This document shows, piece after piece, positions 14,633 to 51,021 of a stretch of DNA of 64,000 nucleotides. The notes under the pieces are model-generated. The model saw only the letters and a list, made by a program, of their open reading frames with translations. It was not told where the DNA came from and searched no databases. The translations under genes were made by a program, and so were the position numbers. The stretch's first letter is position 1. Each line of letters starts with the position of its first letter. The DNA is taken from the IMG/VR virus record IMGVR_UViG_3300024999_001770, positions 1 to 64,000 of that record. One strand, given 5' to 3'. Source of the DNA: a virus.

Positions 14633-14645
14633 AGGAGGGACATGA

Positions 14646-14852
14646 ATGTCATACACAACTAAACAGGGTGATATGTGGGACTCGATGGCAAAGAGTCTTT
14701 ATGGAAGCGAGAAATACACAGAGCAATTAATGCAAGCCAATACCTCTAATATCTCGACCGTAGTTTTCCCTGCAGGGGTAGTATTAACAGTGCCCGAGGT
14801 GAATGCAGGGGCCAACACCAACACGTCATCCCTGCCGCCATGGAGGACTTGA
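14646..14852 (+). CDS. Tail protein X (P2 gpX-like, LysM-type)
   Basis: 68 aa with a LysM-like fold (TTKQGDMWDSMAKSLYGSE; FPAGVVLTVPEV). gpX-like proteins sit between tape measure and gpD and connect the tube tip and hub. The ATG at 14646 is used because GAGGAGGG lies upstream. The stop is adjacent to the gpD start at 14854. Confidence 0.82.
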   Translation: MSYTTKQGDMWDSMAKSLYGSEKYTEQLMQANTSNISTVVFPAGVVLTVPEVNAGANTNTSSLPPWRT

Positions 14853-22316: not shown

Positions 22317-23357
22317 TCATTTCTTAAAGCCGCAGAAGTCTATCAATGATCCATTTGGGTTCTTCCATTTCTTAGTGATTTTTTTATCGTTCTCATTTTC
22401 AAGCGTTGCCAGTGCTTTCGCTTTATCCTCTGTCGTTATATCAAGGTAGATCATGGTGGTCTCCAAGTGCTTATGTCCAAGAAGGAAACTGACTTGCAAG
22501 ACGTTAAGCCCATCTTCAATCCAGTGAGAGGCTTTTCCATGGCGAAATTGATGGGCATGTATGGTTAATGGCACATCCACGCATATTTCGTGTGCTTTCT
22601 TACCATACATCTTCAATCTTTTGTCTATTGCAGGTTCCGTCATCTTCACATATTTTCCACCCACTCTGGAATAAAAAAGGTAGGCATCCGGATCCGCCGG
22701 ATTTCCATGGACTTCATACACATATTTTTTGATATGTGAGACTGCTCTTGGTAGAAGATAAAGCGTCCTTGTCTTCTGGCCCTTGCCGACAATGGTGACA
22801 TACGGCTTCTTCTGATCCATGTGCAATTGTTTGATCCTTACTGACAGGATCTCGTCCAGTCTTGCTGCAGTCGCATACAAAAGGATCATGAAAACAAGAT
22901 CCCTTTTCCCAATGCTTGTAGCCGGATCCGGTAATGACAGCATGGCGTTAACGGCATCCCGTGTCAGTCCACTGACTTTCTTAGGGACGCATTTCTGCCT
23001 TTTAATTGACCTTGCATCCTGATACAGGTACATGAATCTGACATCCCGGCTGCCAACATACTCAAGAAAGACGCGGATAGAAGCAAGACGTACATTACAT
23101 GTGTCCGGACAGCAGTTGCGGCTTTCTTTAAGCCATCGGATCCATTTCTCGATATACAGCTTTTCGAAGCATGCCTTTGTGAAATCAGAGGGCGTTATAC
23201 CTTCGGATTCGAGGAACAGCACATAAAGAGTTAATGCATCCTTATAAGATTTCAGTGTACGTTCACTATTTGTCAGGCTACCTGGAGCATAATCATAAAG
23301 GAAAGTCGCTATGTATCGTGAGAATGTCACAGCTTCATTATTATTCTTCATCATCAA
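22317..23357 (-). CDS. ritC: RIT recombinase C (tyrosine recombinase)
   Basis: 346 aa, third gene of the trio. The catalytic domain shows ATAARLDEILSVRIKQL (first Arg), HAHQFRHGKASHW (His-x-x-Arg), LLGHKHLETTMIYLDIT (His and Tyr). The N-terminal SAM-like core-binding domain covers about 1-115. It starts 17 nt inside the preceding gene, consistent with coupled translation. It would act jointly with the other two recombinases on the element ends. Confidence 0.85.
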   Translation of the reverse strand: MMMKNNNEAVTFSRYIATFLYDYAPGSLTNSERTLKSYKDALTLYVLFLESEGITPSDFTKACFEKLYIEKWIRWLKESRNCCPDTCNVRLASIRVFLEYVGSRDVRFMYLYQDARSIKRQKCVPKKVSGLTRDAVNAMLSLPDPATSIGKRDLVFMILLYATAARLDEILSVRIKQLHMDQKKPYVTIVGKGQKTRTLYLLPRAVSHIKKYVYEVHGNPADPDAYLFYSRVGGKYVKMTEPAIDKRLKMYGKKAHEICVDVPLTIHAHQFRHGKASHWIEDGLNVLQVSFLLGHKHLETTMIYLDITTEDKAKALATLENENDKKITKKWKNPNGSLIDFCGFKK

Positions 23358-24312
23358 CCACCTCTGGTACTATGGCATTGAAATCCAACTCCGTCTTGTC
23401 GATCAGAATATCAGCAAGACGGGGAACGATTGAATAATAATAACGTGTCGCCTCTATAGAACGATGCCCCATGGATTTTGAAAGATAATGCAGCTTATCG
23501 CTGAATTCATAACCATCATCACTCCAACTATTGATGTTTACGATTGCATAATGATGGCGGACATCATATGCGACAGGCGAAGCCACAGAACCATTCGCCT
23601 TGTTCCACAGCGCACGAAAGTTATCCTGTACCCAATCCCTGGAATAGTGGGGGCCTTTGCTGGACTGGAAGAAATATGCCCTGGACGGCTGCAGTTCAGA
23701 AATCGCCTGATTGTATTTCGTCATAAGGTTGGTCATCGTATCATGCATCGCGATATAATGCTGGTCATATCCTTTCGATCTCTGGATATCAATGACACCA
23801 CGTTCAAGGTCGACGTTCTCTGTCCTGAGCAGCCTCGCCTCAGTTGTACGCATACCAGTGCTGTATAATAAACGGAAAAAGACTGGAACCGTGAACTTCC
23901 TTATGACCGATGCCCGCCTTCCGAGATATGGCTGAATACTATCACAGACATGGAAGAAACGTTTCAGTTCATCCTCCTCAAATGCATATGGAATGTATGT
24001 TTGGGGTTCTGGTCTGAGGACAGCAGGAGGAAGGACATCCGTAAGCTCCCTGCATCGTAGGTAATCAATGAACGTCCTTATGACCCTAGTCCTAGTTTCA
24101 TATGAGCGGTTTGTTTCGGTATCCCTTTTGGCACACCAAACATCAACCATCTCCTGTGTTAGTACCGTACTCGACTGATAGTTGTCAGCACAGAAATGGT
24201 CGAAAAGCTTGATGTTCAGCCCATAACACGGTTCGTTCCATGAACCGGATGCCTTACGGTATTCAATAAAGCGTTCTATTAGCTTTGAAAAACCAGATCT
24301 GAACTGGCTCAT
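23341..24312 (-). CDS. ritB: RIT recombinase B (tyrosine recombinase)
   Basis: 323 aa, middle gene. Catalytic residues are visible in YSTGMRTTEARLLRTENVDL (Arg), AYDVRHHYAIVNINSW (Arg within an atypical VRHH) and MGHRSIEATRYYYSIV (His, Tyr). The box-II H-x-x-R is altered: a Tyr replaces the usual His position in YDVRHH. The ATG overlaps the stop of recombinase A by 4 nt (ATGA). Confidence 0.85.
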   Translation of the reverse strand: MSQFRSGFSKLIERFIEYRKASGSWNEPCYGLNIKLFDHFCADNYQSSTVLTQEMVDVWCAKRDTETNRSYETRTRVIRTFIDYLRCRELTDVLPPAVLRPEPQTYIPYAFEEDELKRFFHVCDSIQPYLGRRASVIRKFTVPVFFRLLYSTGMRTTEARLLRTENVDLERGVIDIQRSKGYDQHYIAMHDTMTNLMTKYNQAISELQPSRAYFFQSSKGPHYSRDWVQDNFRALWNKANGSVASPVAYDVRHHYAIVNINSWSDDGYEFSDKLHYLSKSMGHRSIEATRYYYSIVPRLADILIDKTELDFNAIVPEVVDDEE

Positions 24313-25568
24313 GGACAGAACACCCCCTCACTTACCGGGAATGCCTCTATACTTAAAGTGCATTCTTTCAGGTGCACAAGGTCAGCATGGAGGTATGGAT
24401 CCAATGAATGGGGGTTTGAATGCCCCAGCGTCTGACTGATAACCGGCCGAGGGATTCCGCTGCCCAGGAAAGATGTCGCGACATTGTGCCTGAAAAGATG
24501 CGTTCCACGACGGTCGCCTTTTTTCTGCCGCAAAGAAGCGGCTTTATAAATTTTGGCTGCCTGATGCCAGACAGCACTAGCTTTAAACGGATAATGAGGA
24601 TAAACCTCGCTAAGAAACAAGTGAGTATCGTTGCTTTTGGGCCGTTCATTTACAAGATAATCATAAATGGAATTTCCAATAGTTGCTGTAAGAGGAAGAA
24701 CTAGCGGTTGTCCAGTCTTCTGTTGCAGAAAATGTATTTCGTCAGCATCCCAGTCAATGGAACTGAGTTCCATCTCAGCGATATCGCACGCTCTTATCCC
24801 TGTAAAGAACAGTAGTTTACCAACCGCCCTGTCTCGTAATGATAAGCCAGAATTTCTGTCATCAAGCAAGGCATGGATGGATTCAACTTCTTCAGATGTG
24901 AGAAACTGGATATTTTTTCTTTTGGGGCGTATCGGAGGAAGGTATGCAAGGAGAATCTGACATTCTTTTTCTTTCCAGCCAATCCCAGCTTTAAAAACAG
25001 CCGCTAGCTGTTTTTTGTAGCTACTACACTTAGAAACCTTGCCCTCGCTGTCAAGAAAAAAGGAGAGCACATCTTCTTCATTGATACAGTCAAGACTTTG
25101 TAAGCCTTTCTTTTGCATGGCACAGAGGAAAGTTGATGCGGCAGACGCATTCCCATAAATTGTCCGTTCTTTCAGACCGCGGAGTTTATCTGATGCCATG
25201 TAAAAATCTATAAATTCCTTGAATTCTGGGATAAGTTGATAATAAGTGCCTCGTTTTATGAAACAGTTTTTGATTCTTCTGTTCGGATATTCTCCATAAA
25301 GATCGAATTGCTGTATGGCTCCAAATGCTATCCTTTGGTTCTTCTTATACAGTTTCGATTCTGATTTATGTACCCGGTCATTGTAGACATCAATATAAGA
25401 TTGCCATGATCTATACTTTTCATTTTTCAGTATCCATTTGATATCCTCATGAACAAGCCGGATATAGCTTTCTGTGTATTCCTCCTTTTCAATGTAATCC
25501 AATAGTTCACGATAATGCTGTTGCAAATGTGTAAAATCCATATATGAACACCTCCTTGGTTTTATCAT
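24309..25568 (-). CDS. ritA: RIT recombinase A (tyrosine recombinase)
   Basis: 419 aa, the longest and first translated of the trio. Catalytic signatures are LLFFTGIRACDIAEMEL (Arg), THLFRHNVATSFLGSG (His-x-x-Arg) and TLGHSNPHSLDPYLHAD (His, Tyr). An extra N-terminal region of about 90 residues precedes the core-binding domain. AGGAGGTG precedes its start, and the promoter should lie within the right terminal repeat region. Confidence 0.87.
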   Translation of the reverse strand: MIKPRRCSYMDFTHLQQHYRELLDYIEKEEYTESYIRLVHEDIKWILKNEKYRSWQSYIDVYNDRVHKSESKLYKKNQRIAFGAIQQFDLYGEYPNRRIKNCFIKRGTYYQLIPEFKEFIDFYMASDKLRGLKERTIYGNASAASTFLCAMQKKGLQSLDCINEEDVLSFFLDSEGKVSKCSSYKKQLAAVFKAGIGWKEKECQILLAYLPPIRPKRKNIQFLTSEEVESIHALLDDRNSGLSLRDRAVGKLLFFTGIRACDIAEMELSSIDWDADEIHFLQQKTGQPLVLPLTATIGNSIYDYLVNERPKSNDTHLFLSEVYPHYPFKASAVWHQAAKIYKAASLRQKKGDRRGTHLFRHNVATSFLGSGIPRPVISQTLGHSNPHSLDPYLHADLVHLKECTLSIEAFPVSEGVFCP

Positions 25569-34326: not shown

Positions 34327-35190
34327 TCACACCTTCGTTCGTGTTTGACCGAGTTCGAACTCGTGAACCTGTGCGATCAAGGTCTGAATCTTATCTTGGA
34401 AGGCGTCAACCTTGATCGCATATTCATCCTTGAGTTTAGTGGTCGCCTCCAGAACCCGGTTACTTGCCTCAACTCCGGCCGCATGAATCTGCAGGTCAGC
34501 CATTTTTTGTGCGGCGGCAATGGCTTTTTCATGTTCCTTTTCAGCATTAGCCAAGCGCTCTTTTGTGAGTTCGAGGATTTGGCCGTTTTGAACAGCTTCG
34601 GACCGCAGTCTTTCGATTAGACGCTGGCTATCGTCATGCTGTGCCCGCAGCTGCTGAACTTCGGCTTCCATCTCGGCCACGGTCCCGATCTGGGCCTCCA
34701 TAGTTTCGTTTTTCCCGGTTAGCAGATCAATGGTAATTCGATTCGATTTGTTAACGGCTTCAAGTTCGCCGTTTCGCTCAGAAAGCTCCTTGAGTTGATC
34801 TTGGATTTCGGACAGATCCAGCCGGGCCTTGTCGCGTTCGGCTTCAGCCTGTAGTCTACTCTTATCCACCTGGTCAACAATGCCTTGATGCACTCGTTTT
34901 TCTTGATCGATACTTTCTGCGAAATTTTCCTTAAGATCGTGCAGCTTTTGAACCATGTTGGTAAAGATTGATTCGGCATGAGAGAGATGATAGCGGAGTT
35001 GTTGCATATCTTCGGTTTGCTCGGTGTCGCTGCTGGCTAATAAATTAGTTTTGAATTGTGCCACCATGGCCGAGAAAAGATCCTTTTGGCTAAGTCCTGT
35101 GCGCTCGACCAATACTGATACGTCAGACATGACCTCATCGTTGGTGCGGACAGAGTAAAGTGGTGGCTTGTTTTTTGCTTCATCGGACAA
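34327..35190 (-). CDS. RHH/coiled-coil DNA-binding protein (KfrA/partition-like)
   Basis: 287 aa. Residues about 11-47 (LYSVRTNDEVMSDVSVLVER; TGLSQKDLFSAMVAQFK) match the strand-helix-helix of a ribbon-helix-helix domain. Almost all the rest is coiled coil (residues 60-270). DNA-binding domain plus long coiled coil is the plan of plasmid KfrA and some partition adaptors. TTG start with AAGGAGG upstream. Several GTTTAC palindromes lie just upstream and are probably its own operator or a centromere-like site. Confidence 0.6.
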   Translation of the reverse strand: MSDEAKNKPPLYSVRTNDEVMSDVSVLVERTGLSQKDLFSAMVAQFKTNLLASSDTEQTEDMQQLRYHLSHAESIFTNMVQKLHDLKENFAESIDQEKRVHQGIVDQVDKSRLQAEAERDKARLDLSEIQDQLKELSERNGELEAVNKSNRITIDLLTGKNETMEAQIGTVAEMEAEVQQLRAQHDDSQRLIERLRSEAVQNGQILELTKERLANAEKEHEKAIAAAQKMADLQIHAAGVEASNRVLEATTKLKDEYAIKVDAFQDKIQTLIAQVHEFELGQTRTKV

Positions 35191-35212
35191 ATCAATGACC
35201 TCCTTAAATAAT

Positions 35213-35269
35213 ATGTAAACATTTAACCCCCTATATAAGCCGTGTTTACCTATGTAAACATGTTTACAT
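35213..35269. promoter_or_regulatory. Cluster of GTTTAC palindromes (operator or parS-like)
   Basis: ATGTAAACAT (35213-35222), TGTTTAC-CTAT-GTAAACA (35243-35260) and the perfect 18-bp ATGTAAACATGTTTACAT (35252-35269) contain four half-sites upstream of the coiled-coil gene. AT-rich promoter-like sequence (TATAAT on the minus strand near 35285) lies just outside. Confidence 0.6.
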
Positions 35270-35338
35270 TATGTATACTATTATTATAGCACCAATATTT
35301 GTTAGTTGCAAGAATTTAGAAAGTTACTGAAGCATAAA

Positions 35339-35374
35339 AGATAGCCCTTCGGTTGTTGTACCGGAGGGCTATCT
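35339..35374. terminator. Strong bidirectional hairpin
   Basis: AGATAGCCCTTCGG and CCGGAGGGCTATCT, 14-bp arms with one G-T pair and an 8-nt loop, followed by TTTGTTATT on the plus strand. It insulates the coiled-coil gene promoter from the operon ending at 35663. Confidence 0.65.
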
Positions 35375-35424
35375 TTGTTATTCCTTTGACTTTTTTAGTT
35401 CGTAAACATGTTTCTCGATCTCCC

Positions 35425-35568
35425 TCATCGACTCGACCAGCCTCGAATTCGCTGCTCTATACCATTCCGGACAGCTACTTTGATTATGTAGTAGAGGAGA
35501 ACGAGAGATAGGAACCAGAGGCAGAGGAAGAGAATCGTGTTGGGGGGGAGGAATGAGTTAGGGATCAT
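35425..35568 (-). CDS. Possible single-TM small protein, 47 aa
   Basis: Read from the ATG at 35568, the peptide MIPNSFLPPNTILFLCLWFL continues as a membrane helix and ends with a basic tail (RIRGWSSR). A longer version from 35610 would begin within a GC-rich hairpin and is less likely. The ribosome site is poor. A small membrane protein fits the adjacent module, but coding is uncertain. Confidence 0.3.
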   Translation of the reverse strand: MIPNSFLPPNTILFLCLWFLSLVLLYYIIKVAVRNGIEQRIRGWSSR

Positions 35569-35580
35569 CCTTTCATAAGA

Positions 35581-35612
35581 GTATGCCCGCGGCTGGAGTG
35601 CCGCGGGCATAC
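35581..35612. terminator. 13-bp GC-rich perfect hairpin
   Basis: GTATGCCCGCGGC and GCCGCGGGCATAC enclose TGGAGT. It follows the minus-strand operon 39349-35663 and should halt that transcript, although the T-tract is weak. Confidence 0.6.
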
Positions 35613-35662
35613 ATAATCTTTAGTTACTCTTTACCCTAAAACTGCCTTAATTAAACAGTCAC

Positions 35663-36475
35663 CTATTTGCCATCGTTTACATCACTCGCTCCAAACCAAA
35701 TACCAAGGGTCTTTGAACTCTGTAAGTGGTACTTAACGTTACCCCTTACAGTAGATTTGTCAGCTTCTGCAAGATTCGCGTTGTCCCCCATGGCTCCCAC
35801 ATCCCTGAGGATGTTGCCACGTTCAGAAGCCGAAAGGTCTTGGTTGGTTGTATGGATAAGCAATCCCCAAGAAAGGATTACATTCGATGCGGTCTTAGGA
35901 TTAGACAACCCTTGCCCGGCCGCTATTATCATAACATCTCGAATTGATCCATCTGCTTTATTAACAGTCCCCAGTAAGCCGTGGCTATCGTTAAATTGGT
36001 ATCGAAACGTATCCTGCGCTGGCCCGTTCTCGACATTGATTTTCGATATTTTGAAATCAGACATATTTAGCGACGTGGCGCTTGAATTCCATTTGTCTTT
36101 AAACTCATTAGGCTTCAATCCAATCGTTCCGGGTATTTTTTTGGCATTAGCTTCAGCCGCAGCTTTTTCCGCAGCCGCCTTAGCTTCAGCCTCCTGTTTG
36201 GTTTTCAGTTCAGCATCAGTCTTTTCTTTAGCTAACTGCTCAGGAGTCTTTGCAACGGTTGCCACAGTTGGGACGGAGGTTGGTGGGGTCGGAGTGGTAG
36301 TGGTATTGGGTGAATTGATTGCAAAAACACAGAATAACACAAACATAACCAAGGCAGCCAATAAAGTTTGTTTTCGCGTATACTTCTTTTCGCCTTTTGA
36401 AATCCATTTGGGATTGATAGTAACTACCAGCATTAATAGAAAAAGTAGAAAACTCACGATACCGAGAAACTTCAT
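35663..36475 (-). CDS. Two-TM protein with coiled-coil linker, 270 aa
   Basis: Two N-terminal membrane helices (KFLGIVSFLLFLLMLVVTI; QTLLAALVMFVLFCVFAI) are followed by a Thr/Pro stretch and a Lys/Ala/Glu coiled coil (about 75-120). The C-terminal domain (about 125-265) contains GTIGLKPNEFKDKWN and WGLLIHTTNQDLSASERGN. No family recognised. It lies 310 bp downstream of the M23 gene in the same direction, separated by the iteron-bearing gap. AAAGGAG precedes the ATG. Confidence 0.6.
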   Translation of the reverse strand: MKFLGIVSFLLFLLMLVVTINPKWISKGEKKYTRKQTLLAALVMFVLFCVFAINSPNTTTTPTPPTSVPTVATVAKTPEQLAKEKTDAELKTKQEAEAKAAAEKAAAEANAKKIPGTIGLKPNEFKDKWNSSATSLNMSDFKISKINVENGPAQDTFRYQFNDSHGLLGTVNKADGSIRDVMIIAAGQGLSNPKTASNVILSWGLLIHTTNQDLSASERGNILRDVGAMGDNANLAEADKSTVRGNVKYHLQSSKTLGIWFGASDVNDGK

Positions 36476-36590
36476 TCGAGATCAGCTCCTTTTAATTTGA
36501 TTCAATGAAAACCTTTAAAACCTTCTGCGTGGTATAGTCTTTTCCTGCAACTCGACAGGATTAATGGTTTTGCGCTAAAATTTGCAATGG

Positions 36591-36638
36591 TCGTTACCTT
36601 AGTCGCTTACTTGATCGTTAACTTAGTCGCTAATACGA
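36591..36638. repeat. Four tandem 12-bp iterons (TCGYTA type)
   Basis: TCGTTACCTTAG, TCGCTTACTTGA, TCGTTAACTTAG and TCGCTAATACGA follow each other without spacers, each beginning TCGYTA. They lie within the 309-bp gap between two membrane-protein genes. The rest of the gap (36639-36784) is purine-rich and shows no gene. Tandem repeats at about one helical turn are typical of plasmid origins, partition sites or multi-site operators. Confidence 0.7.
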
Positions 36639-36784
36639 CCAATGTACAAGCTAAAACCCGCATAAATCAAGCAAATATTTTCTGAAAAAGAGGGTTAAAG
36701 GGAGGAAGATAGGGGTCCAGGGGGAAGCGGAGGGAACAGGGAAAAGAAATTTTAGCTTTCGCGGAATCAGAGTGGGGGAGGGGC

Positions 36785-37366
36785 CTACCTAAGATACCCC
36801 ATCGGATCGACTGTCTTCCCATTCCTCCGTATCTCAAAATGTAAGTGTGGTCCGGTTGAATTGCCTGTATTTCCGCATGTCCCTATTTTCGCCTTTGCAA
36901 TGATAGACCATCCCGCCTTAACACTTATCCCATTTAGATGAGCATATAGAGATTCTACGCCACGGCCATGGTCCAATACGACGAAGTTGCCATATACCTG
37001 ATTATACTCTACGCGCGTCACAGTGCCTCCTTTGGATGCCCATACGGTTGTTCCAGCTTGACCAGCTATGTCAATTCCGTGGTTGGTGGGGTTATAACCT
37101 TGAGTAATATTCCCAGCCATGGGCATTTCCCAATCTCCCTTTCCTATCCCGCTTAATTTATCGGCTGTATCTTGGAGGTCTTCAGCTCGGGCAGACCATT
37201 TTTCGATTACTGGGGTTAGATCCTGCATGGTGCTTAGTAAGCCGATCATAATCGCAACCATAAATACTAGGTTGGCGAGTTGTTTTCTATTAACCCCAAT
37301 AAGGATTGTATAAGCAATGAATGATCCTATCGAAACGAGAAGTAAATGAAAAATCCATATAGACAC
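36785..37366 (-). CDS. M23-type peptidase with two TM helices, 193 aa
   Basis: Two membrane helices (about 5-25 and 30-48), a linker, then an M23/LytM fold: GYNPTNHGIDIAG, VLDHGRGVESLYAHL (His143) and TGPHLHFEIR (H174-x-H176). The first zinc motif is unusual: H and D are three apart (HGID) where H-x3-D is normal, so activity is uncertain. In conjugative elements such enzymes open peptidoglycan for a transport machine. GTG start; 1 nt separates it from the 78-aa gene. Confidence 0.75.
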   Translation of the reverse strand: MSIWIFHLLLVSIGSFIAYTILIGVNRKQLANLVFMVAIMIGLLSTMQDLTPVIEKWSARAEDLQDTADKLSGIGKGDWEMPMAGNITQGYNPTNHGIDIAGQAGTTVWASKGGTVTRVEYNQVYGNFVVLDHGRGVESLYAHLNGISVKAGWSIIAKAKIGTCGNTGNSTGPHLHFEIRRNGKTVDPMGYLR

Positions 37367-37367
37367 T

Positions 37368-37604
37368 TCACATCACACCTGTTGTAAATTCAAAAAACTT
37401 CTTGAGTAGCTGCCATGCGACAGTTACGACCGAAAGGATAGCGACAATCGTTGTTGCCGTTCTGAGCATGTTTGCGACCTGACCCTTATTAACTGCTCCT
37501 AAAATCAATTCGCCCAACCAAGATCCTACGCCAAGCATAACTAAAACAATGATCACGAAGCCAGGTCTACCGAATCCGAACACTTGAACTGCTGCTTCTG
37601 CCAT
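37368..37604 (-). CDS. Small two-TM membrane protein, 78 aa
   Basis: Two hydrophobic helices (PGFVIIVLVMLGVGSWLGEL; TATTIVAILSVVTVAWQLL) with little else. Size and layout recall small membrane subunits (pilin- or VirB3-like) of conjugation clusters, but no homology is claimed. AGGAGG precedes the ATG, which lies inside the preceding replication-relaxation gene. Confidence 0.6.
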   Translation of the reverse strand: MAEAAVQVFGFGRPGFVIIVLVMLGVGSWLGELILGAVNKGQVANMLRTATTIVAILSVVTVAWQLLKKFFEFTTGVM

Positions 37605-38250
37605 TTAAGCATTCCTCCTTCACGTAATCTAGTGAATAAACCTTGAATTCCAAGTTGTGAACGTTTTCCTTTTGGATCTTCTCATTAAGCTTCTTTACCC
37701 GGCCGGTAGTCACGACGATGATGGGCGGGAAACGTTTAGAGAGAGGAACCCACCACATTTTAATATAAGATTCTGAGGCATAAAGATCATTGTAGCGTCT
37801 AACCTTAACCCCGAAATCGTTCCCACTTTCATCAATGTCTAATTCAACAAATAGGAAGGTAAGTGAATCTTTCCATAAGTTTTTAATTCCAACAAATGCA
37901 TCTGGCCGAACTAGTTTATAATCCTTAACCTCACGATTGAAAGAGTGTAAGCGTTCCATGGAATTGAGCGTTGATGTGATCCATACGTAAATCCAAGATA
38001 CTCCTAGAACGTGCTCCAATTGGCCTGGCTTACTGTCCGTGTAATAATAATTTGGTTCATCCAAAGATATTCTTGCTCGCTTGATTGCCTTGCGATCAGT
38101 AAGCTTCTTAAGTCTGCGCTGAACGATTCGGAGGACATTATCCGGGAAAAGTAGAAGCTTTATTTGATCCGTATTTAGGGCACCGTGAGTTTCCAAGAGT
38201 CGGAATAACTCCTTATCGCGGTGGGAGCATTTTGCGTGGTTGCTCAACAA
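37567..38250 (-). CDS. Replication-relaxation family protein
   Basis: 227 aa. N-terminal winged helix (FRLLETHGALNTDQIKLLLF; NVLRIVQRRLKKLTDRKAIK), then a domain with RPDAFVGIKN and LFVELDIDESG, resembling a restriction-endonuclease-like core. This is the arrangement of the replication-relaxation proteins found on many Gram-positive plasmids and ICEs, always with an FtsK-like partner. TTG start, overlapping the FtsK gene by 38 nt and the 78-aa gene by 38 nt. Confidence 0.75.
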   Translation of the reverse strand: MLSNHAKCSHRDKELFRLLETHGALNTDQIKLLLFPDNVLRIVQRRLKKLTDRKAIKRARISLDEPNYYYTDSKPGQLEHVLGVSWIYVWITSTLNSMERLHSFNREVKDYKLVRPDAFVGIKNLWKDSLTFLFVELDIDESGNDFGVKVRRYNDLYASESYIKMWWVPLSKRFPPIIVVTTGRVKKLNEKIQKENVHNLEFKVYSLDYVKEECLNGRSSSSSVRIR

Positions 38251-39349
38251 AGTTCATCACCTCAACTCGATCAACATCTCTGAGTAATTTCCTAGCCTGT
38301 TTAATAGGTAGGTACATCCCCTGTGTCTCTAGCTCGTTATCCCATTGGTATATTCCCCGTCCGGGAATCGAGGGGATGAGCGCAGCATTCTCGTTGTCTA
38401 GGAGCATCCTAGAGTTAATGCCATCCCGGACGTGGAAACACATCGTCCCCGCGAACATCGCCTTGGAGTCACCGAATGCCTTCATCATTGTGCTGGATGG
38501 CCTTTGAGTAGCGCATACCACACAGATCCCGGCAGCCCTGCCGAGGCGTAGGATGCGATTCAGAGACGTTTGGCATTCCTCATCGTGCATTTCTGCTAGT
38601 TCATCAATTACGATCACTAGAAAGGGCATTTCGTGGCCCTGCTCGATATAATCTTGGATCTTTACACATCCGGCAGACTCAAGGGTGGTTAGTCTCTCAT
38701 CTAGGTTTTTATTGATTGCGTTGAATACGATGGGGGCCTTATCTTGATCCGTTACGAGTAAAACGTGTTCCTTGAGGTAGGAATATTCCAGTCGTTTAAA
38801 GTCTAAGGCAACGGTTCGGATGTCTGTTTTTTTGTTAAGCAACAAACCCATGATAAGTCCGTGGATAAAGTTTGATTTACCTGCTCCCGGGTGTCCGGCG
38901 ATAATGAGGTTCGGCATATCGGCAAGATCCTTAACGACTTCACCGATGGCGGAGTGACCGAAGTGGATCGGGAGATAACCCTTGTACTGAGACGGATCGA
39001 AGGAGTATGGGTATTCGCGCTTGATCTCCGTTGTTGACGCTTGCATAGTGATCACCTTTCCTCTCTTCTCAACCTGGACAGTTCCGCCCATGGCATCGGC
39101 AAAGAGTTGTTCCTTGGCCTTAAATTCCTTGTAGCCGAGACCGGGATCGAGTGAGAGAATGAACCGGTAGGCTTCGCCCGTTAGCTTGATTTTCTTCAGG
39201 ATCTTTGGCTTGGGGTCTTTCGGCCATATTGCGTCGATCACGTCCTGCACGGCTGCGTGGGCATCGTTGCCTTTTCTGTGCAGGAAAAGGTACTTAAGTT
39301 GGTCGCGGACTTCTTCGATGACGTTTTGTTGCTTTGCCAAAGCTGACAC
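38213..39349 (-). CDS. FtsK/SpoIIIE-like DNA translocase (TcpA-like)
   Basis: 378 aa. The ATPase core shows Walker A GHPGAGKSN (about 152-160), Walker B LVIVIDELAEM (about 249) and ICVVCATQRPSSTMM. It lacks N-terminal membrane helices and the C-terminal gamma domain of chromosomal FtsK. Small enzymes of this type act as DNA pumps or coupling proteins on plasmids and ICEs. GTG start. It heads the minus-strand operon with replication-relaxation, small membrane and M23 genes. Confidence 0.85.
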   Translation of the reverse strand: MSALAKQQNVIEEVRDQLKYLFLHRKGNDAHAAVQDVIDAIWPKDPKPKILKKIKLTGEAYRFILSLDPGLGYKEFKAKEQLFADAMGGTVQVEKRGKVITMQASTTEIKREYPYSFDPSQYKGYLPIHFGHSAIGEVVKDLADMPNLIIAGHPGAGKSNFIHGLIMGLLLNKKTDIRTVALDFKRLEYSYLKEHVLLVTDQDKAPIVFNAINKNLDERLTTLESAGCVKIQDYIEQGHEMPFLVIVIDELAEMHDEECQTSLNRILRLGRAAGICVVCATQRPSSTMMKAFGDSKAMFAGTMCFHVRDGINSRMLLDNENAALIPSIPGRGIYQWDNELETQGMYLPIKQARKLLRDVDRVEVMNFVEQPRKMLPPR

Positions 39350-39455: not shown

Positions 39456-40406
39456 ATGAGTAAGTATGATTTAACAATTGCATATGACGGAGTTGCGCTC
39501 CAAGACGGGATCATGGACGTAAGGGAACTGGCTCCAGCTCTTCTTGCCTTCGGTAATTTGCTAGAAGAGGCAAATAAAGAACTTAATGGGCCAAACTCTA
39601 AGATGCAAGTATTAGTTAAATCTGACTTTAAAACAGGCTCCTTTCATGTAGATTTTGAAATAGTAAGAACAATAGCTGAACAGATCGGCTTTTTGTTTAA
39701 TAGTGTTCATTCTCATTCGATTGAAGAGATACTAAACCAATTAGGACTTATCGCAACTCTTACCGGGTTAAATCCAATTACCCTATTTGGCTTATTCAAG
39801 GCCATTAAGGGTAGAAAGATTAAAAGGGGAACTGTTGTTGAAAATAATAACGTAAGGCTTGATTTCGATGATAATTCAGAACCAATTGTTGTTGAAAGAC
39901 CTGTTTATCAGCTATTCGTCAATATTAAGGTACAGAATTCAATACAAAGCATCCTTAAGCCATTGGAGAAGGAAGGCATTGATCGGTTCTTTACTCAGAA
40001 AAACGGGACTACCGAAAAGGTAGTTACTAAATCTGAAGTTCCTTATTACCGCATCCCGGAAATATCCAAGAACTCAGAAGAAGAAAAAATTCTAGAATCC
40101 ACTTCAAAGGCGGCCTTTAAGATAGTGACAGCTTCATTTGAAGAAGGTTATAAATGGCGGCTCACTAATAATGGACAGGATAAAATTACTGCGACATTAA
40201 GGGACCCGGCATTTATAAACATGATAGATAATAATGAAGTTTCTCTTTCGAAAGAGGACTTGCTAATTGTTGAAATGAAAACCACTCAATGGCATGGGCA
40301 TGACGGGAGCATAAAAACCGAGAATGAGATTTTACAAGTAATAGAGCATAAGAAGATGGGTAAGCAATTGGCGATACCATTTTTTGACGATAATAAGCGA
40401 AGTTAA
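39456..40406 (+). CDS. Conserved unknown protein, 316 aa
   Basis: Begins SKYDLTIAYDGVALQDGIMD VRELAPALLAFGNLLEEANK (quoted in two parts). Proteins starting with this pattern are scattered in bacterial genomes and mobile regions, with unknown role. The middle has a short hydrophobic stretch (ILNQLGLIATLTGLNPITLF), the C-terminus a beta-rich domain (YKWRLTNNGQDKITATLRD). Gene is divergent from the FtsK operon with its own AGGTGATTT site, and has its own terminator. Likely cargo. Confidence 0.6.
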   Translation: MSKYDLTIAYDGVALQDGIMDVRELAPALLAFGNLLEEANKELNGPNSKMQVLVKSDFKTGSFHVDFEIVRTIAEQIGFLFNSVHSHSIEEILNQLGLIATLTGLNPITLFGLFKAIKGRKIKRGTVVENNNVRLDFDDNSEPIVVERPVYQLFVNIKVQNSIQSILKPLEKEGIDRFFTQKNGTTEKVVTKSEVPYYRIPEISKNSEEEKILESTSKAAFKIVTASFEEGYKWRLTNNGQDKITATLRDPAFINMIDNNEVSLSKEDLLIVEMKTTQWHGHDGSIKTENEILQVIEHKKMGKQLAIPFFDDNKRS

Positions 40407-40474: not shown

Positions 40475-40500
40475 CCATATCGTTGACGTCAACGATATGG
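40475..40500. repeat. 26-bp perfect palindrome
   Basis: CCATATCGTTGAC followed directly by its reverse complement (GTCAACGATATGG), without spacer. It overlaps the last codons and stop of the minus-strand gene at 40489. No T-tract lies on either side. A dimeric protein or recombinase binding site is as likely as a terminator. Confidence 0.75.
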
Positions 40501-40734
40501 TTCTTTCTCAGATTTCAGATTAAACATAAGTGCCTTGGCTATGAGTTGGGCCGCGTCGGGGGTAATAGGCTCCACCGATACCCGTAGCGCACCCATCTCC
40601 GTCAACATCCTCCGAAATCCATCCCGGACCATATCGGCCATTTCTCCTTCCTCTAGGTTTAAGCGCTTAACCGCCTGCTGAATGTCCTTGTCTCTCCTTC
40701 GGAGTCTTGCGCGTAGGATTGTTATGTCGCTCAT
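40489..40734 (-). CDS. Hypothetical helical protein, 81 aa
   Basis: The ATG at 40734 is used because CAGGAGG stands just upstream on the minus strand; a longer frame to 40797 lacks one. The sequence is helical and basic in the first 30 residues (DITILRARLRRRDKDIQQAV). Perhaps a small DNA-binding or copy-control protein; no family recognised. Its stop lies within the 26-bp palindrome. Confidence 0.5.
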   Translation of the reverse strand: MSDITILRARLRRRDKDIQQAVKRLNLEEGEMADMVRDGFRRMLTEMGALRVSVEPITPDAAQLIAKALMFNLKSEKEPYR

Positions 40735-40877
40735 TTGTGTACCTCCTGTGCTACGAGTGTGATCTGTTGTGACCCAAGAGGGTTCCGTCTGTGTCACAAA
40801 TTACCTGTTAAAGATATATGCCTTGCGGGGTATAATATTACTCATAAGGACTATTTCGAAATAAAAAAATTCCCTGT

Positions 40878-42331: not shown

Positions 42332-42574
42332 ATGACTACAGAAGAAGATCAAATTCTTATTGACTTATATGAGGACATCAAGGATGATCAAGAATTTGCA
42401 ATTATAATGAAGGAAGTAGTTAAATTAGGAAAGATCATGATTGATAAATTAGGCACTGATTATCTTTTGTTCCTTAAATATGAAGAGTTAATTTGTCATG
42501 CAGAGGGGATAAAGCTTAAAAAGGCACTTGGATTTATGAATATAGATTCTAAAGTTAATACAGATAACATGTAG
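42332..42574 (+). CDS. Hypothetical acidic protein, 80 aa
   Basis: Starts at the ATG at 42332, 8 nt after GAGGGGG. All helical (EEDQILIDLYEDIKDDQEFA; GKIMIDKLGTDYLLFLKYEE). Its final codons form the left arm of a 20-bp inverted repeat. Unknown function; location beside the integrase suggests an accessory to recombination or simply cargo. Confidence 0.5.
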   Translation: MTTEEDQILIDLYEDIKDDQEFAIIMKEVVKLGKIMIDKLGTDYLLFLKYEELICHAEGIKLKKALGFMNIDSKVNTDNM

Positions 42575-42609
42575 AAGGCAATGAATTAACTTCTACATGT
42601 TATCTGTAT
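42558..42609. repeat. 20-bp perfect inverted repeat beside integrase
   Basis: Arms at 42558-42577 and 42590-42609 (ATACAGATAACATGTAGAAG and its complement) around a 12-nt spacer. It overlaps the stop codon of the 80-aa gene. Its length is more than a terminator needs, and it lies in the only gap next to the serine integrase, where attP of such phages is usually found. Confidence 0.6.
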
Positions 42610-42621
42610 ATGGCTTAAAGC

Positions 42622-42650
42622 AGCACCCAGTATGGAACTGGGTGCTTTTA
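42622..42650. terminator. Strong terminator between 80-aa gene and integrase
   Basis: AGCACCCAGT-ATGGA-ACTGGGTGCT, perfect 10-bp stem followed by TTTATT on the plus strand. On the minus strand it is followed by TTAAGCC, so it mainly stops plus-strand transcripts. It abuts the integrase stop codon. Confidence 0.75.
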
Positions 42651-44252
42651 TTGCGCTTCGTTCTGTGGAATCTCGGATAATTTAGGATGAATTACTAAGG
42701 TAAAATCGTCATCTTTTTGGCGTTTTTCTTTTTTGTATTCAGCATAATTAAGAACCGATTTTAAAAGAGCATTTTTCTTTGCAGGATCATCTGTCTTGTA
42801 ATACAGGCTGATGGCGTTTTCAATTTTAGGAATAACCTCATTGTTAGCAGTTTTTCGGAGTTGTTCCTGTTCTATCGTTTGACCCAATTCCTTTATGGTA
42901 TTTGTAATTGTGTCTGAACGCTCAGCCAAAACTCGAGAACGTTCTAGATAAGTTTGAATATCGTAAGCTCCTTGCTCAAGTAAATCGTGTAACCGACCTT
43001 TTTGTTCAGAAATTTCTAATAGATCTTTTTCAAGTTTTTGTTTATTTTTTTCATGGAATACAATGGAATCATTCTTATCTTGTTGATTAGGTTTATCACT
43101 CCAATCAAGTTGGTAGTTTTTCAACCATTGGGAAAGTCCTTCAATTATACGATTTTCAACATAATCTAAACGAGAACTTTTGTTCGGGCAATTGGAACTG
43201 ATGCAGATTAAATGCGGATATTGTTGATGAGAATATGGGCGCCTAACCATCATGGAACCACACATTCCACAGTGTATTAAGCCGGACAAAGGGTTAACGA
43301 TTCCACTGTAAAGTTGATAAGGTACATGATATTTACCCTTGAGAATTTCTTCTGCTTTTTTAAATACTTCCATGGATATTAAAGGTTCATGTTTACCCAT
43401 TACGTCTATCCACTCATCCTTTGGTCTTGTTTTAATATCCTTCTTTTTTCCAGGCGTAATAGATTTTTTGATTTCTTTCTTTCGCCATTGGATACGGCCG
43501 GCATAGACTGCATTCTTTAGCATAAATATGATAGAAGATCTTTCCCATAATCTTCCCGTTGAAGAACGATAGCCAAGCCGATTTAACTCAGCGGCTATTT
43601 TATTTGCGCCAATGGATTTGTTGGGATCGTCATTAGTGTATAAAGTAAAAACCATCTGAACAATGGGCGCTTGTTCGGGATCGGGAACAAGAAATCTATT
43701 ACCCTTACCTTCAGACTTAATTGAATAGCCAAATGGTGCACGAGTACCGATATAGTTACCTGCTTCGACTGAGCTTACGCGGCCACGTTGAAGACGTCGA
43801 TTAATATATCGTAGTTCTTTGTGTGCCATAAATTGTTCAAAATCAACGTATTCTTCGTCCCATTCGTCGCTTAGATCATAGGTTTTTCGCGGAGTAATAA
43901 TCTTTGTGCTAGATCCTTTGAATGTTTCTAAAATTATTCCCTGGTCCTGTTTCTTTCCGCGACCCAAGCGGTCAATATCCATACAAAGCACCGCATCATA
44001 CATACCTTGTTCAATTTCCTTTAGCGTCAACAGCATTTCTGGTCTGTGTACAAGGAATTCACCGGATTCAAGTTCTTTTCTAATTTGGATGATGTTAATA
44101 TTATTTTCTTTGGCAAATTTCAATAAATAAGACTCATGCTTAGCTAGCGTTTCACCTTCCCCCCTCGCCTCTGCCTCAAGATCGGTTCTCGATTTACGAA
44201 GGTGCAAAAGTGTTCTATTAAATTTTTGCTTCAAGATCAATACCACCTTCAC
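42648..44252 (-). CDS. Large serine recombinase (phage integrase)
   Basis: 534 aa. The catalytic N-terminal domain shows HLRKSRTDLEAEA (active Ser in RKSR), MDIDRLGRGKKQDQG and the FEQFMAHKELRYINRRLQRG helix. The recombinase domain follows (TRAPFGYSIKSEGKG), then the zinc ribbon LSGLIHCGMCGSMMVRR with its later CISSNCPNK, and a coiled coil (about 400-470). It would catalyse attP x attB integration. Its ATG overlaps the repressor stop by 4 nt, coupling integrase to the lysogeny repressor. Confidence 0.92.
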   Translation of the reverse strand: MKVVLILKQKFNRTLLHLRKSRTDLEAEARGEGETLAKHESYLLKFAKENNINIIQIRKELESGEFLVHRPEMLLTLKEIEQGMYDAVLCMDIDRLGRGKKQDQGIILETFKGSSTKIITPRKTYDLSDEWDEEYVDFEQFMAHKELRYINRRLQRGRVSSVEAGNYIGTRAPFGYSIKSEGKGNRFLVPDPEQAPIVQMVFTLYTNDDPNKSIGANKIAAELNRLGYRSSTGRLWERSSIIFMLKNAVYAGRIQWRKKEIKKSITPGKKKDIKTRPKDEWIDVMGKHEPLISMEVFKKAEEILKGKYHVPYQLYSGIVNPLSGLIHCGMCGSMMVRRPYSHQQYPHLICISSNCPNKSSRLDYVENRIIEGLSQWLKNYQLDWSDKPNQQDKNDSIVFHEKNKQKLEKDLLEISEQKGRLHDLLEQGAYDIQTYLERSRVLAERSDTITNTIKELGQTIEQEQLRKTANNEVIPKIENAISLYYKTDDPAKKNALLKSVLNYAEYKKEKRQKDDDFTLVIHPKLSEIPQNEAQ

Positions 44253-49779: not shown

Positions 49780-51021
49780 TTGAAAAAACAAAGCATATTT
49801 AAATATGCCGAGTTACAGGAAATGCAATCATGGGAACTCGATAAAAAGATTGAAGCAGCCAAGGAAGTAATTCGTGAAACATTTAAACAGGGTAAAAAAA
49901 TCGCTCTTGCCTTTTCTGGCGGCAAAGACTCAACTGCGCTATGGCATTTAATCCTTACGACATGTCCAGAGCAAGCCAAGGATATGGTTGTTATTTTCGG
50001 CAATACGGGTGTTGAGTATCCAGAAAGCCTCAATTTCGCTAGGAAGCTCGGTAGGGATTGGGGTGGAGAGAACTTCCATGAAACAAAGCTAGATCGACTG
50101 AAAGTACCACGTCTGAGATATGAAGCACAAAAAGAAGTATTGTCACTGATCGAAGAGCTCGGAGAAATCGGAAAATACCTAAACAAGAAAGGCCGTTTAC
50201 TTTCTACAGACAAGCTGAATGAAGCTGTGACTCCCGAGATGTGGGAAGACTTTCGTCAACGCAAGCTTGTTTGGGAGAAAGGAACACTCGTCAGCTTTTG
50301 GTTCATCGCAGAACAGTACGGCTTTCCTATCTTAGGCAAAGACGCCACAAAACTTGATGCTCCCCGGATTAACATTAACGTGTTCCTGAAGTACAGCCCG
50401 GAACAGTCGAAGGGTAACGACAGATATTACGAAATGCTGAGAAAGTTCCCAGATATGAGAATATCTCATAGTTGTTGTAACTTCATCAAGGAACGACCTT
50501 CGCAAAAGCTCCAAAAGAAACTTGGATGTGACACGCTCTTTCGAGGTCTGTTGGCAAGTGAATCGAGGCGCAGGACTTTTACCTTTCTCGACTATGGATT
50601 TCTATACAATACGGCTGACAATTATTTGTATTCCAACCCTTTGTCAATTTGGAATGATGTTGATGTTTGGGATTATATACACAAATTTGATGTGCCTTAT
50701 GCACCGTTGTATGACCTGATAGATGAGGGCGGGAAAAAACTGTTTGAACGTAATGGCTGCTACACTTGTGGTACTGGCCTTGCTTACGAGAGAAATAACA
50801 TTGAAATCCTACGCAAATATTACCAGCAAAAATGGGAGGCTTTAATGAGATATGGCATGGCAAAGGAGATGAAAACATTTGCCTGTGCTATCAGTGACGA
50901 CATAAGGTTGAACGCCCTAGAGCATGACTGGCTATTAGATATGAGGCCGTGCGCATTCGATAGGTTGACACCGAGGAAAAACATACTCGAAGACCTACAA
51001 TACGGAACATTATTATTTTAA
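49780..51021 (+). CDS. PP-loop (PAPS-reductase-like) enzyme with Fe-S motif
   Basis: 413 aa. N-terminal PP-loop ATP-binding motif LAFSGGKDSTALW (residues 44-56). A Cys pair (SHSCCNF, 232-233) and RNGCYTCGTG (327-330) give the CC...CxxC spacing of [4Fe-4S] APS reductases and related sulfur-inserting enzymes such as DndC. It would activate a substrate with ATP and use sulfur or reducing chemistry on it. Target unknown; phage DNA or tRNA modification are possible. TTG start after GGAGGTG. Confidence 0.72.
   Translation: MKKQSIFKYAELQEMQSWELDKKIEAAKEVIRETFKQGKKIALAFSGGKDSTALWHLILTTCPEQAKDMVVIFGNTGVEYPESLNFARKLGRDWGGENFHETKLDRLKVPRLRYEAQKEVLSLIEELGEIGKYLNKKGRLLSTDKLNEAVTPEMWEDFRQRKLVWEKGTLVSFWFIAEQYGFPILGKDATKLDAPRININVFLKYSPEQSKGNDRYYEMLRKFPDMRISHSCCNFIKERPSQKLQKKLGCDTLFRGLLASESRRRTFTFLDYGFLYNTADNYLYSNPLSIWNDVDVWDYIHKFDVPYAPLYDLIDEGGKKLFERNGCYTCGTGLAYERNNIEILRKYYQQKWEALMRYGMAKEMKTFACAISDDIRLNALEHDWLLDMRPCAFDRLTPRKNILEDLQYGTLLF

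What the first reader, a model, noticed from the sequence alone, without database searches (positions are those of the whole stretch)
34327..39349. Plasmid/ICE-like module inside a phage genome
On the minus strand: FtsK-like DNA pump, replication-relaxation protein, small two-TM protein, M23-like peptidase with TM helices, two-TM coiled-coil protein, then a separate RHH/coiled-coil protein with palindromic sites. FtsK + replication-relaxation pairs belong to Gram-positive plasmids and ICEs. A wall hydrolase and small membrane proteins add a conjugation-like look, although no relaxase or VirB4 gene is present. It could serve extrachromosomal maintenance, segregation or transfer of the phage genome.
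Basis: partly seen in the sequence, partly recalled or inferred. Interest (0 to 1): 0.7.

Follow-up and report, generated by a model that had tools for sequence, protein, structure and literature searches.

The report
Phage-borne DNA-export (mobilization-like) operon
A temperate phage, whose relatives live in spore-forming sulfate-reducing bacteria, carries a conserved set of genes that looks like a small machine for moving its DNA through the cell envelope: a DNA pump, a nickase-like protein, small membrane proteins, a cell-wall cutter and a matching repeat site on the DNA.

Summary
The block is real. On the minus strand, an FtsK-like pump (38213-39349), a Replic_Relax protein (37567-38250), a 2-TM protein (37368-37604) and a 2-TM protein fused to an M23 peptidase (36785-37366) form a tightly coupled operon. 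Its order is conserved in about 20 phage contigs and in prophages of Desulfosporosinus and more distant relatives. (1) Replic_Relax (PF13814) is the family of MOBC relaxases; the protein is predicted to be a winged helix plus a PD-(D/E)XK-like nuclease with a plausible active site, so a relaxase-type protein may be present. (2) Just after the operon lies a single-copy array of 12-bp repeats, found essentially only at this module; the MOBC plasmid pAM373 has 12-bp repeats near its relaxase gene. (3) Both 2-TM proteins are distant homologues of the sporulation channel protein SpoIIIAC. The motor is closest to TcpA-type coupling protein structures. Best reading: a mobilization-like DNA-export module in an integrating temperate phage. 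FtsK + Replic_Relax pairs in phages are already published; the SpoIIIAC-like subunits, repeat site and peptidase fusion are the new part. Function is inferred, not shown.

The parts
40489..40797 (-). Small RHH-like DNA-binding protein; first gene of the operon in kin
   Evidence: 46-72% identical copy lies upstream of ftsK in L003-L008, L065; RHH fold is by eye, no family hit
39456..40406 (+). Inserted gene (phrog_3243, unknown function) that splits the RHH gene from ftsK; not part of the module
   Evidence: absent between RHH and ftsK in L003 and L005
38213..39349 (-). FtsK/TcpA-like ATPase motor (start probably TTG at 39340), no TM segment
   Evidence: PF01580 2.1e-18; profile best hit in PDB is 6o1z 'DNA translocase coupling protein' 4.6e-48, ahead of FtsK 1.2e-39; Walker A GHPGAGKS and Walker B VIVIDELAE
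37567..38250 (-). Replic_Relax (PF13814, MOBC-relaxase family) protein: winged helix + PD-(D/E)XK-like domain, pattern D117..E136-x-D138..K149..Y153
   Evidence: pLDDT 87.8; weak Foldseek hits to PD-(D/E)XK nucleases and wHTH proteins
37368..37604 (-). TM-A: 2-TM protein, distant SpoIIIAC homologue
   Evidence: (kin L009 to TIGR02848 SpoIIIAC 1.7e-4)
36785..37366 (-). TM-B (2-TM, SpoIIIAC-like, residues 1-68) fused to an M23 peptidase with intact HxxxD/HxH zinc site
   Evidence: PF01551 1.2e-31; TM-B exists alone in the same slot in L056, L064, L067, L134
36586..36646 (-). Repeat site: one inverted and four direct copies of RCGAYYA(A) at 12-bp spacing, candidate oriT/loading site
   Evidence: 0 such clusters in 50 shuffled windows
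35663..36475 (-). Membrane protein with two TM segments and Ala/Glu/Lys-rich stretch; accessory, slot varies in kin
35312..35401 (.). Inverted repeat, terminator-like, separating the operon from 34327-35190
34327..35190 (-). Separate coiled-coil protein (possible RHH N-terminus); 70% identical copy near the module in L101
42648..44252 (-). Large serine integrase of the phage
   Evidence: PF07508 1.5e-21; phrog_95 8.1e-96

Best explanation
The operon is a mobilization-like DNA-export module carried by an integrating temperate phage. The Replic_Relax protein, a MOBC-family relaxase relative, probably with the RHH-like protein, recognises the 12-bp repeat array and opens or nicks the DNA beside it. 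The TcpA/FtsK-like ATPase, which has no membrane anchor of its own, docks on the SpoIIIAC-like two-TM subunits TM-A and TM-B and pumps phage DNA through the membrane. The M23 domain, placed outside the cell by TM-B, opens the wall locally. The likely result is transfer of excised phage DNA to another cell, either alone, as with TraB/TdtA pumps, or through a co-resident conjugation system. Shown here: operon conservation, domain identities, the repeat site and its restriction to the module, homology of TM-A/TM-B to SpoIIIAC. Inferred: nicking, which protein binds the site, membrane docking, transfer.
For: Conserved, overlapping operon in about 20 phage contigs and several prophage genomes. Motor profile is closest to coupling protein structures 6o1w-z; TraB also scores 7e-15. 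PF13814 is listed as the MobC relaxase superfamily (PMC5357655), and MOBC relaxases have a PD-(D/E)XK-like nuclease domain (PMC5714925; PMC12857230). The Rel model is winged helix + nuclease-like alpha/beta domain, with a D..E-x-D..K pattern matched by D152/E170/E172 of the pAM373 protein. MOBC TraX binds five direct repeats at its oriT (PMC12857230); pAM373 has 12-bp repeats (79% identical at lag 12) near its PF13814 gene, and the phage array has the same 12-bp period, once per genome, at the module. In L004, L006 and L056 the array is followed by a hairpin, not a gene start. M23 relatives on plasmids lie beside FtsK, VirB4-like and TrbL genes. TM-A/TM-B profile: SpoIIIAC is the best non-module match among 4049 ORFs, 7e-6 to 4e-5 versus 0.19 for the next.
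Against: No VirB4, VirB6 or VirB8 gene was seen in the genes scanned, so a full mating channel is absent. PMC5357655 reports that TcpA proteins were never paired with PF13814 relaxases in streptococcal elements. Direct profile similarity between Rel and the pAM373 protein is weak (hhalign probability 0.4), so membership rests on Pfam. The M23 domain is missing in several kin modules, so it is not essential. Repeat arrays were not found by the same test near GBSV1, pBM400, Pookie and more distant modules. In this window a gene inserted between RHH and ftsK may change expression.
Confidence: 0.5

Rival explanations
1. Plasmid-prophage maintenance: the repeat array is a centromere, RHH and Rel bind it, and the FtsK-like motor helps segregate or resolve a circular phage genome. 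This is how phage papers and the first reader read such genes.
For: PMC9658697 describes FtsK, Replic_Relax, TrbC/VirB2 and ParG-like genes in phage Novomoskovsk as plasmid replication/segregation; Izhevsk and Kirov are read similarly; such pairs occur on circular phage-like plasmids.
Against: Serine integrase in this phage and a chromosomally integrated relative at tRNA-Pro; no ParA/ParM/TubZ among scanned genes of the window; a wall peptidase has no obvious role in partition.
Confidence: 0.2
2. Septal or forespore DNA delivery: a SpoIIIE-like motor with SpoIIIAC/AD-like membrane subunits and a SpoIIQ-like LytM domain moves phage DNA across a division or sporulation septum so that it enters the spore.
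For: TM-A and TM-B are SpoIIIAC homologues; a true SpoIIIAC-family gene (3.9e-13) sits by ftsK-rel on plasmid pMU3262, followed by a Spo0E gene; SpoIIQ is among the structural matches of the M23 domain; carriers found belong to lineages known for spore formation.
Against: An integrated prophage travels with the chromosome. SpoIIQ is far from the best M23 match. The spore-former test was uninformative: 7 of 7 module genomes have PF06686 but so do 247 of 299.
Confidence: 0.15
3. Lysogenic-conversion gene set that blocks or expels incoming DNA (superinfection exclusion) or alters the envelope; the array is an operator.
For: Location between lysis and lysogeny genes, typical of accessory genes; small membrane proteins.
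Against: A MOBC-family protein, coupling-type motor and single-copy repeat site are not needed for exclusion; array is followed by a hairpin in L004, L006, L056.
Confidence: 0.1
4. Degraded plasmid remnant without function.
For: Gene inserted between RHH and ftsK in this phage.
Against: Open frames, conserved catalytic motifs and order at 30-50% identity.
Confidence: 0.03

Closest known systems
FtsK + Replic_Relax (+TrbC/VirB2-like, ParG-like) gene set of Bacillus phages, e.g. Novomoskovsk, Pookie, GBSV1 (PMC9658697)
   Same: Same motor family and PF13814-type partner, adjacent, in phages; a small 2-TM gene also flanks or follows the pair in the nine reference loci inspected
   Different: Different 2-TM families in most of them, no TM-B, no M23, and no 12-bp array found by the same test
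MOBC relaxase/oriT systems (pAD1 TraX, pAM373, CloDF13 MobC)
   Same: PF13814 domain, PD-(D/E)XK-like fold and active-site pattern, 12-bp direct-repeat site near the gene
   Different: Partner motor is TcpA/FtsK-like and not VirD4-like; no mating-channel genes; sequence similarity to the pAM373 protein beyond Pfam is marginal
tcp conjugation locus of Clostridium perfringens pCW3 (TcpA motor, TcpK wHTH on tandem oriT repeats, TcpG wall hydrolase)
   Same: Motor closest to coupling protein structures of this type; wHTH protein; wall hydrolase; tandem repeats at oriT (PMC6137059)
   Different: No TcpC, TcpF, TcpH homologues seen; the relaxase-type protein is MOBC-like, not tyrosine-recombinase-like TcpM
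SpoIIIA-SpoIIQ channel with SpoIIIE
   Same: SpoIIIAC-like paralogous 2-TM pair, LytM/M23 domain, FtsK/SpoIIIE motor family
   Different: No SpoIIIAA, AB, AE, AF, AG, AH seen; motor is not SpoIIIE and lacks its TM and gamma domains
TraB/Spd plasmid transfer (Streptomyces) and TdtA transjugation (Thermus)
   Same: FtsK/HerA-type pump exporting DNA without a type IV mating channel (PMC5365140); TdtA also works with a nuclease in a small tRNA-integrated element
   Different: DNA recognition is in a separate protein here; TraB carries its own DNA-recognition domain; hosts unrelated

Membership tests
MOBC relaxase (PF13814) | Matches PF13814 above the curated cut-off | tested here: met
   41.6 bits vs 25.3; kin L006, L056, L067 also pass, L009 does not
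MOBC relaxase (PF13814) | PD-(D/E)XK-like nuclease fold with active-site residues | tested here: inconclusive
   Model and residue pattern agree but best Foldseek E is only 2.2e-3
MOBC relaxase (PF13814) | Direct-repeat bind site near the gene | tested here: met
   12-bp array at 36586-36646, as near the pAM373 gene; that Rel binds it is not shown
MOBC relaxase (PF13814) | Site-specific nicking at oriT | not testable with these tools
   needs biochemistry
TcpA-type coupling protein | FtsK-like ATPase closer to TcpA than to FtsK or VirD4 | tested here: met
   6o1z 4.6e-48 vs FtsK 1.2e-39; no VirD4/TrwB structure among hits
TcpA-type coupling protein | N-terminal transmembrane segments | tested here: not met
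   No hydrophobic TM stretch before the ATPase domain in the window protein or near kin (sequence)
Complete Gram-positive conjugation system | VirB4, VirB6, VirB8 homologues | tested here: not met
   None among the genes scanned in 34-44 kb and the main genes elsewhere; not every small ORF was scanned
SpoIIIAC/AD family (PF06686) | Curated cut-off match | tested here: not met
   Window proteins do not pass; homology is seen only with profiles of the group
Plasmid partition system | Motor ATPase ParA/ParM/TubZ with adapter and centromere | tested here: not met
   No such ATPase among scanned genes

The most novel reading that the evidence does not exclude
Temperate phages of spore-forming Clostridia carry a self-sufficient DNA-transfer apparatus, built from a TcpA-like pump, a MOBC-type nickase with its own repeat site, a pair of membrane subunits that share ancestry with SpoIIIAC, and a wall-cutting enzyme, and use it to pass phage DNA between cells without virions; the sporulation SpoIIIA channel and this apparatus would be related.
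Probability: 0.2. Interest if true: 0.88.

Novelty: new variant of a known kind. Interest (0 to 1): 0.62.

Why it matters
FtsK + Replic_Relax pairs are widespread on phages and plasmids of Firmicutes, and I found no report of a tested function for them in phages. Recognising the partner as a MOBC-family protein, the small flanking genes as SpoIIIAC-like membrane subunits, and a single-copy 12-bp repeat site turns an annotation puzzle into a testable machine: which protein binds the repeats, is DNA nicked there, and does the pump move phage DNA to other cells or across the septum. If it does, such phages would have a second, virion-free route of spread, and the sporulation channel would gain mobile-element relatives.

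Tried and rejected
Near-identity DNA search in phages: no match. Replic_Relax tblastn in phages: none with the window protein; with the GBSV1 protein 8 phages and 147 plasmids, the listed plasmids all in Bacillales. First genome scan with a single sequence found nothing; an alignment found four loci. VirB2/TrbC identity for TM-A rejected: the Novomoskovsk protein is not matched by the TM-A/TM-B profiles. M23-only loci L011-L020 are unrelated contexts. Spore-former association by co-occurrence was uninformative. A repeat array near other FtsK-Rel pairs was not found by autocorrelation; in the window that test alone is weak (2 of 60 shuffles reach it), so the motif-cluster test and conservation carry the claim. 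G039 has an orphan, diverged copy of the site without the operon nearby. pAD1 TraX paper could not be read.
Full report
WHAT THE WINDOW IS. The window is 64 kb of a 65,729-base IMG/VR virus record. It is a contractile-tailed temperate phage: terminase, portal, capsid, sheath, tape measure and baseplate genes at 0-20 kb, amidase near 28 kb, serine integrase at 42,648-44,252, anti-repressor, helicases, Sak4 and primase at 45-63 kb. The finding lies between the lysis and the lysogeny genes. The host of this record is not known; the nearest cellular relatives of the module are in Desulfosporosinus genomes.

OBSERVATION. The genes are as described. Domains are solid for FtsK_SpoIIIE, Replic_Relax and Peptidase_M23. 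FtsK overlaps Rel by 38 nt, Rel overlaps the 2-TM gene by 38 nt, and the M23 gene starts 1 nt after it. The module-type RHH-like gene is 40489-40797, which in kin directly precedes ftsK (e.g. L003, L005). In this phage a plus-strand gene of unknown function (39456-40406, phrog_3243) separates them. The 34327-35190 gene is a different transcription unit behind an inverted repeat at 35312-35401.

CONSERVATION. FtsK, Rel, TM-A and TM-B-M23 occur in the same order in L002-L008 and, by other queries, L027-L055. Contigs L009, L010, L038-L042 keep the order at 35% (FtsK), 30% (Rel) and about 40-50% (M23). L056-L063 have FtsK, Rel, an extra protein, TM-A and, where read, a 69-aa TM-B without M23. In Desulfosporosinus-type genomes, L064 and L067 also have TM-B alone, while L065 and L066 have the M23 fusion. 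A profile search of 46 genomes of the host family found Rel in 13, and 7 of 299 in a phylum-wide draw; contexts L099-L109 and L132-L138 show the same core in many cases, sometimes with TM-A and TM-B swapped. So the core is motor, Rel, two 2-TM proteins; M23 is an add-on.

INTEGRATION. In Desulfosporosinus UBA8487 the module lies just inside a prophage whose chromosomal edge is a tRNA-Pro gene; amidase, holin, tail and portal genes follow on the far side. The window phage has a serine integrase. An episome is therefore not required for carrying the module.

MOTOR. The profile of the FtsK proteins hits 6o1w-z, 'DNA translocase coupling protein', at 4.6e-48, ahead of FtsK at 1.2e-39 and EssC/EccC. 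A 2025 review cites the TcpA structure of pCW3 (code given as 6OZ1, presumably this series) and notes that TcpA resembles FtsK and may move double-stranded DNA (PMC12857230). In NCBIfam, EssC, FtsK and TraB score similarly. The protein has no TM segment and no gamma domain.

REL. PF13814 is listed as the relaxase superfamily MobC in streptococcal mobilizable elements (PMC5357655). MOBC relaxases have a PD-(D/E)XK-like nuclease domain (PMC5714925; PMC12857230). The AlphaFold model (mean pLDDT 87.8) shows a winged helix and an alpha/beta domain; Foldseek returns PD-(D/E)XK nucleases (Nt.BspD6I, Shedu, MunI, PaqCI) and wHTH proteins, all weakly (best E 2.2e-3). D117, E136, K149 and Y153 are invariant in 17 kin; the pattern corresponds to PD..ExQ..K in GBSV1 and pBM400 and to D152, E170-x-E172 in the pAM373 protein. 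PLSDB types pAM373 as relaxase MOBC, and the gene annotated as replication-relaxation there is 13007-13792 (27.1 bits vs cut-off 25.3). Direct profile similarity to it is marginal, so relaxase identity is a strong lead, not a proof.

REPEAT SITE. Downstream of TM-B/M23 lies an array: an inverted TTGGTCGT followed by four copies of RCGAYYA(A) at 12-bp spacing (36586-36646). A search for three or more such copies at 11-13 bp finds this one place in the window and the same place in kin, and none in 50 shuffled windows. A 20-base flanking pattern occurs in 4 viral contigs, each carrying the module, and in 5 of 46 genomes once each: four beside the module, one orphan diverged site in G039. L099 has a 12-bp array with another core. 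In L004, L006 and L056 the array is followed by a hairpin and not a gene start, which argues against a mere promoter/operator. TraX of pAD1 binds five direct repeats at its oriT; in pAM373 the gap 14522-14650, near the PF13814 gene, holds a clear 12-bp array (79% identity at lag 12, 0 of 60 shuffles).

MEMBRANE PARTS. TM-A of L009 hits TIGR02848 (SpoIIIAC) at 1.7e-4 over nearly its full length. hhalign of TM-A(far) and TM-B with SpoIIIAC gives 5e-4 and 7e-4 over about 50 columns; reversed and unrelated controls are at 0.008 or worse, apart from one short 14-column self-reversal match. A profile of TM-A and TM-B ranks SpoIIIAC and the pMU3262 SpoIIIAC-like protein directly after module members among 4049 ORFs (7e-6 to 4e-5; next 0.19). 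TM-A and TM-B hit each other's profiles, so they are probably paralogues. Window sequences alone do not pass PF06686. Plasmid pMU3262 has a true PF06686 gene (3.9e-13) before its FtsK-Rel pair and a Spo0E gene after it. In nine reference loci a small 2-TM gene flanks or follows the FtsK-Rel pair: a membrane subunit seems to be a general third part. The positive loop between the two helices would place the M23 domain outside (inference). The M23 model is a standard LytM fold with conserved zinc ligands. Plasmid relatives of this M23 sit beside FtsK, DUF87 and T4SS-type ATPase genes in Paenibacillus pY5S7-2 and beside TrbL in a Planococcus plasmid.

MECHANISM. The best-supported model is a mobilization-like DNA-export module: Rel/RHH at the repeat site, nick or opening, handover to the soluble TcpA-like ring docked on TM-A/TM-B, passage through membrane and, where M23 is present, wall. 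Destination is the weakest step: another cell is favoured because the parts match conjugative relaxosome/coupling systems; septal or forespore delivery is favoured by the SpoIIIAC link; segregation is the reading of published phage annotations (PMC9658697, PMC7685451, PMC10454425).

NOVELTY. FtsK-Replic_Relax pairs with a small TM protein and RHH gene in phages are published. What I did not find in the literature searched is the SpoIIIAC relationship, the TM-B-M23 fusion, the conserved 12-bp site, and the TcpA-like plus PF13814 pairing described as a transfer module; that pairing was reported absent in streptococcal mobilizable elements. Absence from an open-access library is not proof of novelty.

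Noticed in passing
window 22317-25568 (-): Three consecutive, overlapping tyrosine-recombinase-like genes on the minus strand between tail and lysis genes; first and third hit integrase families. Looks like a recombinase-in-trio element inserted in the phage.
   Followed up: no
window 39456-40406 (+): Unknown gene (phrog_3243, E=7e-58) inserted between the RHH-like gene and ftsK; a 26-bp perfect palindrome CCATATCGTTGACGTCAACGATATGG spans the RHH stop codon next to it.
   Followed up: partly
window 42558-42609: Near-perfect 25-bp inverted repeat (92%) just past the serine integrase stop; candidate att site or terminator.
   Followed up: no
L099 (G012:C1:3129000-3148900): The operon with M23 and a variant 12-bp array stands in a 4.3 Mb contig next to a ComM-like gene and surface-polysaccharide genes, with no obvious phage genes within 10 kb.
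   Followed up: partly
L055:4642-5229: A GIY-YIG-like (homing endonuclease-like, by eye) gene on the opposite strand is inserted between ftsK and rel.
   Followed up: no
L040, L042, L100, L101, L106, L107: A conserved exported-looking protein of 170-240 aa with N-terminal and C-terminal TM segments (M.LVLKKSSIKRTLALS...) follows the module in the more distant versions; unknown family.
   Followed up: no
window 49780-51021 (+): Phosphoadenosine phosphosulfate reductase-like gene in the early region, of note for a phage whose kin are in sulfate reducers.
   Followed up: no
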